64,000 bases of DNA, taken from Histidinibacterium aquaticum. GTDB taxonomy: Bacteria; Pseudomonadota; Alphaproteobacteria; Rhodobacterales; Rhodobacteraceae. Location: NCBI RefSeq assembly GCF_008710275.1, contig NZ_VYQE01000004.1, forward strand, positions 248,001 to 312,000, written 5' to 3'. The translations under genes and the position numbers were made by a program. The notes below the pieces were generated by a model that saw only the letters and a list, made by a program, of their open reading frames with translations, had not been told where the DNA came from and did not search any database. Shown in pieces: positions 10,658 to 56,951 of the stretch (position 1 is the first letter of the stretch; every line of letters starts with the position of its first letter).

Positions 10658-10840
10658 ACTATTTCCTCCCCGCGCACAGCGTTAGCGGCAACAGGGAGCG
10701 TGTCAACACGTCGCGGCGGGGCTTTCGGGGGAAGAGAAGCGGAAAATTCCGGGGAGGGGGCCTCGGAGGATGCCCGAGCCCGCTGCACGGGGGTCTCACG
10801 CGCAGCGCCGGGGTCCGGTCAAAGGTTAACAGACGGCGGC
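10658..10840. other. Gene-free gap upstream of the ABC importer
   Basis: No convincing coding region. It must hold the promoter of the minus-strand ABC operon, whose first ribosome site (gaggaaat) is at 10662-10669. An extra GTTAAC lies at 10825-10830. I see no clear operator palindrome in this part. Confidence 0.5.
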
Positions 10841-10901
10841 GTTAACTTTTTTACGGTTTAATATCAGCGACATGACCCCCTGTCCAAGTTTGGACAGGGC
10901 G
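10841..10901 (-). repeat. Extragenic palindrome element, copy 1 (after idi)
   Basis: Read on the minus strand, directly after the idi stop: a 22-bp inverted repeat with 10-nt arms (10878-10887 and 10890-10899, core GTCCAA/TTGGAC, 2-nt centre), then GGTCATGTCGCTGA, an A-run, and GTTAAC (10841-10846). The centre of the inverted repeat is exactly 45 bp from the centre of GTTAAC, as in the other two copies. It may be a bound operator/promoter or a 3'-end RNA element. Confidence 0.7.
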
Positions 10902-34663: not shown

Positions 34664-35611
34664 ATGAGCCAGCCCACCGATACCCGCCCCGTTTCGGCGC
34701 TCGCCGCGAACGCGGGGCTGATCTGCATGATCGTCGCCATGCTGCTGCTGCCGGTGGGCGATACCTTCGCCAAGGCCCTCACCGGCGCCATCGGTCCGGT
34801 CGAGGTCACCATGTGGCGGTTGCTGGCCCAGGCGGTCTGCCTCGTCCTCGTAGGGCTTCTCCTGCGGCACCGGCTCCAGGGCCCGATGTTCTCGCCGGTG
34901 GTGGCCCTTTCGGGCGGGCTCATCATGATCACGCTCACCAGCCTGATCGGTGCCTTCGCGGTCATGCCCATCGCGACGGCCATCGCCATCTTCTTCGCCG
35001 AGCCGCTGATCCTTACGTTGCTCGCCGTGCCCCTGCTGGGCGAGCGGATCGGTCCGAGGAGGCTTGTCGCCGTCGGCGTCGGGCTCTTTGGCGCAATGGT
35101 GGTGATCCGGCCCGGCTTCTCGACCTACGGCTGGGCGACGCTGCTGCCCCTGCTGGCCGCGACGACCTATGCGCTGAACATGATCGTGCTGCGCTACGCC
35201 AGCCGCGAGCGGTCGGGCCTGACGATCCAGTGCGGCGCAACGCTCTACGCCGCGGGTGGCATGGTGGTCGTCGTGGCGGCCTGCGGCGCGCTGGGCCTGA
35301 TCGAGGTCACGCCGCTGAACCGTCCCGCCTGGACCTGGGGCGCGATCGCCGGGGCCGGCGTCTTTGCCGCGGCGAGCTTCGTACTCATCGCCGAGGCCTT
35401 CCGCCGGGCCGAGGCCGGGCTGCTCGCGCCTTTCCAGTACCTGGAGATCCTCGGCGCGACGGCGCTTGGCTACTTCGTGTTCGGAGACTTTCCGGACCTG
35501 CTGACCTGGGTCGGTATCGCCATCATCCTGGCATCGGGGCTCTACGTCTTCCACCGCGAGCGGCAGCCGGGCGCAGATCGCCCCCCGCGCCGGCGACGCG
35601 GGGGGCGTTAA
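34664..35611 (+). CDS. EamA/DMT-family transporter
   Basis: 315 residues with ten hydrophobic helices in two EamA repeats (about 15-140 and 155-300). Drug/metabolite transporter superfamily; members move amino acids, nucleobases and other metabolites. Seen: GDTFAKALTGAIGPVEVTMWRLLAQA in TM1-2, FFAEPLILTLLAVPLLGERIG at the end of repeat one, and FQYLEILGATALGYFVFGDFPD in repeat two, the usual EamA pattern. Substrate not predictable. Its TAA stop lies inside the GTTAAC of repeat element copy 2. Confidence 0.85.
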   Translation: MSQPTDTRPVSALAANAGLICMIVAMLLLPVGDTFAKALTGAIGPVEVTMWRLLAQAVCLVLVGLLLRHRLQGPMFSPVVALSGGLIMITLTSLIGAFAVMPIATAIAIFFAEPLILTLLAVPLLGERIGPRRLVAVGVGLFGAMVVIRPGFSTYGWATLLPLLAATTYALNMIVLRYASRERSGLTIQCGATLYAAGGMVVVVAACGALGLIEVTPLNRPAWTWGAIAGAGVFAAASFVLIAEAFRRAEAGLLAPFQYLEILGATALGYFVFGDFPDLLTWVGIAIILASGLYVFHRERQPGADRPPRRRRGGR

Positions 35612-35666
35612 CTCTTTTAGCGTTCCATTTCAGGGACATGACCCCACGTCCAAATTTGGACGGTCC
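35605..35666 (-). repeat. Extragenic palindrome element, copy 2 (after msrA)
   Basis: On the minus strand, 4 nt after the msrA stop: a perfect 16-bp palindrome CGTCCAAATTTGGACG (35662-35647), then GGGGTCATGTCCCTGA, an A-run and GTTAAC (35612-35607). Centre-to-centre distance is 45 bp. It fills the whole gap between two convergent genes. Confidence 0.75.
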
Positions 35667-56088: not shown

Positions 56089-56147
56089 GGCGTCCAAATT
56101 TGGACGCATGACTAAATTACTGTTCTGTAATCAAAAAAGGGTTAACG
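56089..56147 (+). repeat. Extragenic palindrome element, copy 3 (after marR-like gene)
   Basis: Perfect 18-bp palindrome GCGTCCAAATTTGGACGC (56090-56107), then CATGACTAAATTACTG, an A6 run and GTTAAC (56141-56146), centres 45 bp apart. Only 4 nt separate GTTAAC from the GTG start of the next gene, so here the element occupies the complete promoter region of that gene. Confidence 0.75.
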
Positions 56148-56150
56148 GGC

Positions 56151-56951
56151 GTGACGCTCACCTTTGGACTCAAGTCGCTCGGACTGGCGACCGACCTGCT
56201 CGCGATGACGGGCCTTTCTGATATCGAGAGCCTCGAGGACCGGATCGTCGTCCGGACACCCGGCGAACCGGACTACTGGTTCGGCAACACCGTGATTTTC
56301 CGGGACGACCGGATCGATCCGCGGCCGCAGGTCGAGATCTTCAACGAGCATTTCCCCGATGCCCGGCACATCGTCATCCAGTGGGATTCGCCCGGCCTGA
56401 CCGCACCGCCCGAGCATCCCGATCTGGAGGCGCTGAAGCTGGAGCTAGAGTATTCCGATGTCCTGACACTCGATGGCGTTCCAGAGGACGCGGAGCCGCC
56501 GGAGGGGATCGACCTGAGACGTATCGGCACGGACGAGGAATGGGGCCAGGTCGTTACGCTCCAGAACGAGATGGGCCTGGAGGACGGCTACGATCCCAAC
56601 GCGCACCCCGCCTATATCGAACAGCGCTTTGCCGCGGTTCGTCGGCAGATCGAGGGCGGTCTCGGCGCCTGGTTCGGGGCTTTCGACGGCGATCGGCTGG
56701 TCGGGGACATGGGCGTCCTGCACGACGACAAGGTCGCCCGGTTCCGCAGCGTGGAGACGGCCGCGAGCCACCGGCGGCGAGGCATCTGCTCGGCCCTGCT
56801 CTCCAAGACCGGGCGCTGGGTCCGGGAGCGAGCGCCGGAGGCCACGCTGGTGATCGTGGCCGATTCGGACGGCTCCGCCGGACGGCTCTACCAAGCGGCC
56901 GGTTTCCGGATGACCGAACGGATGATCGCGGCGGTGCGGCCTGGGTACTGA
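56151..56951 (+). CDS. GNAT N-acetyltransferase-like protein
   Basis: 266 residues, GTG start. Two parts: an N-terminal region (about 1-110) with DYWFGNTVIFRDD and FPDARHIVIQWDS, then a GNAT domain (about 115-266) with FRSVETAASHRRRGICSALL as acetyl-CoA motif A and GRLYQAAGFRMTER as motif B. Substrate unknown. No ribosome site is obvious: bases before GTG are part of the repeat element. Separate from the preceding MarR-type gene by 62 nt. Confidence 0.82.
   Translation: MTLTFGLKSLGLATDLLAMTGLSDIESLEDRIVVRTPGEPDYWFGNTVIFRDDRIDPRPQVEIFNEHFPDARHIVIQWDSPGLTAPPEHPDLEALKLELEYSDVLTLDGVPEDAEPPEGIDLRRIGTDEEWGQVVTLQNEMGLEDGYDPNAHPAYIEQRFAAVRRQIEGGLGAWFGAFDGDRLVGDMGVLHDDKVARFRSVETAASHRRRGICSALLSKTGRWVRERAPEATLVIVADSDGSAGRLYQAAGFRMTERMIAAVRPGY

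What the first reader, a model, noticed from the sequence alone, without database searches (positions are those of the whole stretch)
56089..56147. Three-copy extragenic element: palindrome 45 bp from GTTAAC, placed right after a stop codon
Copies at 10841-10901, 35605-35666 and 56089-56147 share one layout: 1-4 nt after a stop codon, an inverted repeat with core GTCCAA-N2-TTGGAC (arms of 8-10 nt), a CTG at a fixed place, an A-rich run, and GTTAAC. The centre-to-centre distance is 45 bp in all three. The flanking genes are unrelated (idi, msrA, marR-like). Fixed spacing with variable filler suggests two DNA-bound parts or a promoter with an operator over its -35: TTGGAC is followed by 17 bp and ATATTA in copy 1. 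A LuxR-type box is one possibility. I know no family with this description.
Basis: seen in the sequence. Interest (0 to 1): 0.72.

Follow-up and report, generated by a model that had tools for sequence, protein, structure and literature searches.

The report
IHF-anchored repeats with lineage-specific palindrome
The finding is one visible part of a repeated DNA element that sits just after genes in scattered Rhodobacteraceae: a predicted site for the DNA-bending protein IHF stays the same in every species, while the palindrome beside it differs between lineages and has changed in step at many places in the genome, as if an unknown protein that reads it had changed too.

Summary
GTCCAA-N2-TTGGAC occurs 65 times in this 3.9 Mb genome (reversed control 0), nearly always with one right-hand layout. 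Seventeen copies have GTTAAC centred 44-46 bp away.

A covariance model with randomised palindrome arms finds the same architecture in at least six other genera, usually with one palindrome per genome. Examples are GTGCACATGTGCAC, GGTTGCAAGGTTGCAACC, TTATCGCACGCGATAA and GTCCCAGCTRGGAC; the congener H. lentulum has GTCCAC..GTGGAC. Three other congeners lack it. Twelve of 34 H. lentulum elements share a neighbouring gene with an element here (about 1.9 expected), with the palindrome changed each time.

Elements avoid divergent promoters (67 convergent, 11 divergent), lie a median 9 bp after stop codons and show no strand preference. They are not promoters, LuxR boxes or RAYT-linked REPs. Best reading: an IHF-centred transcription-unit boundary element, like E. 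coli RIB/RIP (BIME-1), with an unknown co-evolving palindrome-binding protein. IHF binding and function are inferred.

The parts
10882..10895 (-). Copy 1, P1 palindrome GTCCAAACTTGGAC (arms extend to 10879-10898), 6 bp after the idi stop codon
10862..10874 (-). Copy 1, IHF-type site CATGTCGCTGATA (7 of 9 defined consensus bases)
   Evidence: consensus
10841..10846 (-). Copy 1, distal site GTTAAC; a second GTTAACC (10824-10830) faces it
35648..35661 (-). Copy 2, P1 palindrome GTCCAAATTTGGAC, 5 bp after the msrA stop codon
35628..35640 (-). Copy 2, IHF-type site CATGTCCCTGAAA (6 of 9)
   Evidence: consensus
35607..35612 (-). Copy 2, distal site GTTAAC; the TAA stop of the convergent EamA gene (34664-35611) lies inside it
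56092..56105 (+). Copy 3, P1 palindrome GTCCAAATTTGGAC, 3 bp after the marR-like stop codon
56113..56125 (+). Copy 3, IHF-type site TAAATTACTGTTC (6 of 9), followed by the A-tract 56132-56139
   Evidence: consensus
56141..56146 (+). Copy 3, distal site GTTAAC, 5 bp before the GNAT gene start at 56151

Best explanation
The element is a composite DNA-protein site that marks the 3' boundaries of transcription units. IHF binds the invariant right half and bends the DNA. A dimeric sequence-specific protein, not identified, binds the palindrome P1. With the fixed distal (half-)site near +49 the complex folds a compact loop between neighbouring genes and most likely acts as a barrier to RNA polymerase read-through and/or to supercoiling. 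The palindrome changes together with its reader, so lineages have their own version while the IHF part stays. Shown here: copy number, layout, lineage-specific palindromes, shared orthologous locations with changed palindromes, gene context. Inferred: IHF occupancy, existence of the P1 protein, looping, barrier function.
For: Position-specific constraint with near-random filler. IHF consensus match confined to one offset in G000 and G065 (6.8 and 7.2 of 9 against about 2.5 elsewhere), with A/T at 43-44 in 94-100% of copies. Distal sites at fixed places: GGTTAAC +47 to +49 and GTTAACC +64/65 in G000, TGTGGAC +49 and GTTAACC +66 in G065, GTGTTAACG in G004 and TGTGCACG in G118. R3, a model blind to palindrome sequence, returns hits that agree on one palindrome (two in G101) within each genome. 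Shared orthologous sites with changed palindromes. Convergent 67, divergent 11, P = 6e-11; tandem 33 against 27, P = 0.5; median 9 bp from stop codons and 74 bp from starts.
Against: No P1-binding protein was found. IHF binding rests on a motif, and R3 was trained on that half, so hits in other genomes are selected for it. Barrier function is by analogy. Distribution is patchy, even within the genus, which is odd for a housekeeping role. Several elements (27 tandem, 11 divergent) lie upstream of a start codon.
Confidence: 0.5

Rival explanations
1. A selfish non-autonomous repeat (REP- or MITE-like), spread and homogenised by an unidentified transposase with IHF help. Promoters are avoided only because insertions there are harmful, and replacement by transposition explains the lineage-specific palindromes.
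For: Patchy distribution across and within genera; two palindromes in one genome (G101); strand-neutral, promoter-avoiding placement as for REPs.
Against: No Y1_Tnp/RAYT in G000 or G065. Filler between fixed points is near random, with no recent near-identical copies. Sites are shared between species and genera more often than chance. No defined ends or target duplications seen.
Confidence: 0.27
2. An RNA-level 3'-UTR element: the palindrome forms a hairpin right after the stop codon that protects, terminates or stalls on the mRNA, as REPs near stop codons can.
For: Palindrome a median 9 bp after the stop codon; flanks of the core pair more often than expected.
Against: No strand preference in tandem pairs. 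Terminator-like hairpins with T-runs in only 11 of 53 and 3 of 34 copies, and on the other strand in 10 and 8. The palindrome centre leaves a poor loop. The most conserved part is the IHF-like half, not the hairpin. No Rfam match.
Confidence: 0.1
3. A DNA-uptake or self-recognition sequence with species dialects.
For: Dialect-like divergence between species; A/T positions spaced by about one helical turn.
Against: Only about 65-80 copies found per genome; IHF has no obvious part in uptake; patchy distribution.
Confidence: 0.04
4. A promoter with an operator, for example a LuxR-type regulon.
For: TTGGAC resembles a -35 box; GTNC-type arms with a 2-bp centre resemble tra/lux boxes (general knowledge).
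Against: Divergent regions are depleted; -35 becomes GTGGAC or other letters in other species; element-rich G101 and G004 lack Autoind_bind proteins.
Confidence: 0.03

Closest known systems
RIB/RIP elements (BIME-1) of E. coli: IHF-binding repeats at the 3' ends of transcription units (Boccard & Prentki 1993, cited in PMC12306157)
   Same: Short extragenic repeats, tens of copies, palindrome plus IHF site at a fixed distance, 3' ends of genes, promoters avoided.
   Different: Palindromes are unrelated to E. coli REPs and differ between lineages; contiguous half-sites with a 2-bp centre rather than a looped hairpin; no RAYT in G000 or G065; a distal GTTAAC-like site instead of a second REP.
CGTC-tagged REPs of alphaproteobacteria (Di Nocera 2013, PMC3733652)
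   Same: Extragenic palindromes in alphaproteobacteria without a dedicated transposase; several families per group.
   Different: Those have a CGTC tag, 8-9 bp stems with 4-5 base loops and a CCA tail, mostly head-to-head dimers; here there is an IHF-type site, no loop, and single copies.
RAYT-associated REPs/REPINs (GTAG type)
   Same: Lineage-specific palindromes in extragenic positions.
   Different: GTAG tag and Y1 transposase absent here.
Correia/NEMIS elements of Neisseria (PMC2229807)
   Same: Small intergenic repeats, one class with an IHF site shown to bind in vitro.
   Different: 105-155 bp MITEs with terminal inverted repeats; no such ends seen here.
Stoperators of Cluster A mycobacteriophages (PMC9283540)
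   Same: Many dispersed binding sites that stop transcription elongation; site and reader diverge between relatives (general knowledge).
   Different: Phage genomes, asymmetric site, monomeric repressor, no IHF.

Membership tests
RIB/RIP (BIME-1) | IHF-type site at a fixed place in an extragenic repeat | tested here: met
   Motif only:
RIB/RIP (BIME-1) | Location at 3' ends of transcription units | tested here: met
RIB/RIP (BIME-1) | Built from REP (PU) palindromes with GTAG tag | tested here: not met
   Palindromes unrelated, no GTAG tag
RIB/RIP (BIME-1) | IHF shown to bind | not testable with these tools
   Needs gel shift or ChIP
RAYT-associated REP | Y1 (RAYT) transposase in the genome | tested here: not met
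   PF01797 absent from G000 and G065, controls positive
CGTC-REP | CGTC tag, 8-9 bp stem, 4-5 base loop, CCA tail | tested here: not met
   Definition in PMC3733652; palindromes of G118, G101, G004 and G091 lack CGTC
Intrinsic terminator | GC-rich hairpin followed by a T-run | tested here: not met
   11/53 and 3/34 copies only
LuxR-type box | LuxR-type (Autoind_bind) regulator present wherever the site is repeated | tested here: not met
   None found in G101 and G004
Known structured RNA | Match to an Rfam family | tested here: not met
   No match in six loci

The most novel reading that the evidence does not exclude
A chromosomal boundary system in which one conserved architectural site (IHF) is paired with a palindrome whose recognition code is rewritten in concert at dozens of 3' gene ends, lineage by lineage, by an undiscovered co-evolving DNA-binding protein.
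Probability: 0.4. Interest if true: 0.88.

Novelty: new variant of a known kind. Interest (0 to 1): 0.72.

Why it matters
It extends the RIB/RIP idea to Rhodobacteraceae in a form where palindrome and reader appear to change together, so the old question of what extragenic palindromes do can be tested with natural replacements at orthologous sites. It also gives a search method (IHF half plus any palindrome) for similar element families that sequence-based repeat searches miss because the palindrome differs in each lineage.

Tried and rejected
The exact-palindrome search across the family suggested a one-genome oddity; this was misleading because only the palindrome sequence is lineage-specific. 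RAYT/REP mobilisation: no Y1_Tnp in G000/G065. LuxR box: PF03472 distribution does not fit. Promoter: wrong context, no conserved -10. Intrinsic terminator: few T-runs. Known RNA: no Rfam match. Model R2 had a mis-set bracket string and was never used; R3 replaced it. A class-wide search outside the family gave single hits in 7 of 384 genomes, read as chance. Looking for a gene family that recurs beside elements gave ABC ATPases, LysR regulators and cold-shock genes, no clear partner. One layout match inside a dehydrogenase gene (L043) was left out of the statistics. The msrA 3' end has no element in the other genera read there.

Full report
CHECK. Within the window alone the palindrome is only mildly surprising. 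In the whole genome it is not chance: 65 exact copies of GTCCAANNTTGGAC and none of the reversed control, against 0-3 in 295 other genomes of the family. GTTAAC follows within 15-45 bp in 17 copies, always with centres 44-46 bp apart. So the spacing is real but not strictly 45, and GTTAAC is present in about a quarter of copies.

ANATOMY. Fifty-four copies were oriented and stacked without gaps. Outside the palindrome the information is concentrated at a few points, Y21 A22 A23 G24, Y28 T29 G30 A31, W32-T34, A37 and A/T at 43-44, while columns in between are near random. This does not fit neutral decay of one master copy and points to a functional site. On the other strand it reads AWWTCAR-NNN-CTTGR, close to the IHF consensus WATCAANNNNTTR (consensus as found in the papers). 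The fit is confined to one offset both here (6.8 of 9 defined bases on average) and in H. lentulum (7.2 of 9), against about 2.5 elsewhere. The A/T tract lies about 10 bp out on the WATCAA side, as in the lambda H' site (my own knowledge). Single copies are imperfect: the three window copies match 6-7 of 9. Further fixed features are GGTTAAC at +47 to +49 and GTTAACC at +64/65 here, and TGTGGAC at +49 and GTTAACC at +66 in H. lentulum. The flanks of the palindrome core pair more often than expected.

OTHER SPECIES. G065, in the same genus, has no GTCCAANNTTGGAC, yet a covariance model of the element finds 43 matches there with the palindrome GTCCACNNGTGGAC. G065 is taken to be Histidinibacterium lentulum, because its contig C3 has the length and the msrA position of NZ_ML119083.1. 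To remove dependence on palindrome sequence, the arms of 61 copies were replaced by random complementary bases and model R3 was built. Among 296 Rhodobacteraceae, with only 18 candidates scored per genome, R3 finds 8-14 hits in G137, G118, G004, G101 and G285 and 2-3 in G091, G064, G202 and G284. The hits read in each genome share one palindrome, and genomes differ: GTCCCAGCTRGGAC (G137), TTTGTGCACATGTGCACAAA (G118), GGTTGCAAGGTTGCAACC (G004), GCGTTCACGTTTGAACGC (G285), TTTTCACGCGTGAAAA (G091), and both TTATCGCACGCGATAA and CATAACCATGGTTATG in G101. Some palindromes recur in single hits elsewhere: G284 has that of G091, and G244 that of G065. Because R3 cannot prefer any palindrome, this agreement within genomes is independent evidence; the IHF half in these hits is not independent, since R3 was trained on it. 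The other three congeners have 0-4 weak hits, best E 0.04. Outside the family only isolated hits appear.

SHARED SITES. Comparing genes next to elements, 12 of 34 H. lentulum elements share a neighbour (at least 50% identity) with an element here, six of them both neighbours. About 1.9 are expected under a simple estimate (3,700 genes, 75% shared; these inputs are my assumption), P about 7e-7. They include serS, dnaN-recF, asd, rpsO and two cold-shock genes (gene names from sequence, not from a database). In all 12 the H. lentulum locus has exact GTCCAC..GTGGAC; the partner here has exact GTCCAA..TTGGAC in nine and a degenerate form in three. Neighbours are also shared across genera: hslU with G137, fmt with G004, idi with G064 (the gene of window copy 1), and both neighbours of one element in G285 and G091. 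Location kept, palindrome changed: that is the most striking result.

CONTEXT. For 138 elements with both neighbours known in eight species: 67 convergent, 33 and 27 in the two tandem orientations, 11 divergent; P = 6e-11 for convergent against divergent and 0.5 for strand. P1 lies a median 9 bp from a stop codon but 74 bp from a start codon. Gene calls are my own codon-usage predictions. Terminator-like hairpins with T-runs are a minority and occur on both strands alike. No Rfam family matches.

HOW IT WORKS. Lack of strand preference, avoidance of promoters and the IHF-type half argue for a DNA-level structure at transcription-unit boundaries. I propose that IHF bends the element and that a dimeric protein on P1, with the distal site, completes a nucleoprotein barrier. 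The protein is unknown. A LuxR-type regulator is not a general answer, since none was found in two element-rich genomes, and RAYTs are absent from G000 and G065. The main rival is a mobile repeat with an unknown enzyme.

KNOWN KINDS. It works most like RIB/RIP (BIME-1) of E. coli, described as IHF-binding repeats at the 3' ends of transcription units (Boccard & Prentki 1993, cited in PMC12306157), but it is not filed as a member, because the REP/RAYT features were tested and not met. It is not a CGTC-REP as defined in PMC3733652. Literature searches found no description in Rhodobacterales, within the limits of an open-access library.

Noticed in passing
L043 (G000:C4:507464-507523): A full layout match (palindrome plus IHF-type half) lies in frame inside a 676-aa dehydrogenase-like gene; whether it is a real intragenic element or chance is unclear.
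   Followed up: partly
G101, loci L282-L285, L331, L332 against L328-L330: One genome carries two palindrome types with the same IHF layout, as if two reader systems coexist.
   Followed up: partly
L215 (G065:C6:331960 onward): Two DnaA-box-like TTATCCACA/TATCCACA motifs lie just downstream of the IHF half of one element.
   Followed up: no
L237, L239, L242, L245, L246, L006, L033 (G000): A subset of copies has a GG centre (CCAAGGTTGG), some with degenerate outer bases such as GTCCAAGGTTGGTC or GACCAGGGTTGGTC; possibly an older or second palindrome type in this genome.
   Followed up: no
window 35607-35612: The stop codon of the EamA-like transporter gene is inside the distal GTTAAC of copy 2, so the element fills the whole convergent gap.
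   Followed up: no
L249 (G296:C77:12319-12666): A Y1 (IS200-like) transposase gene with one internal TAG stop in a congener that lacks the element.
   Followed up: no
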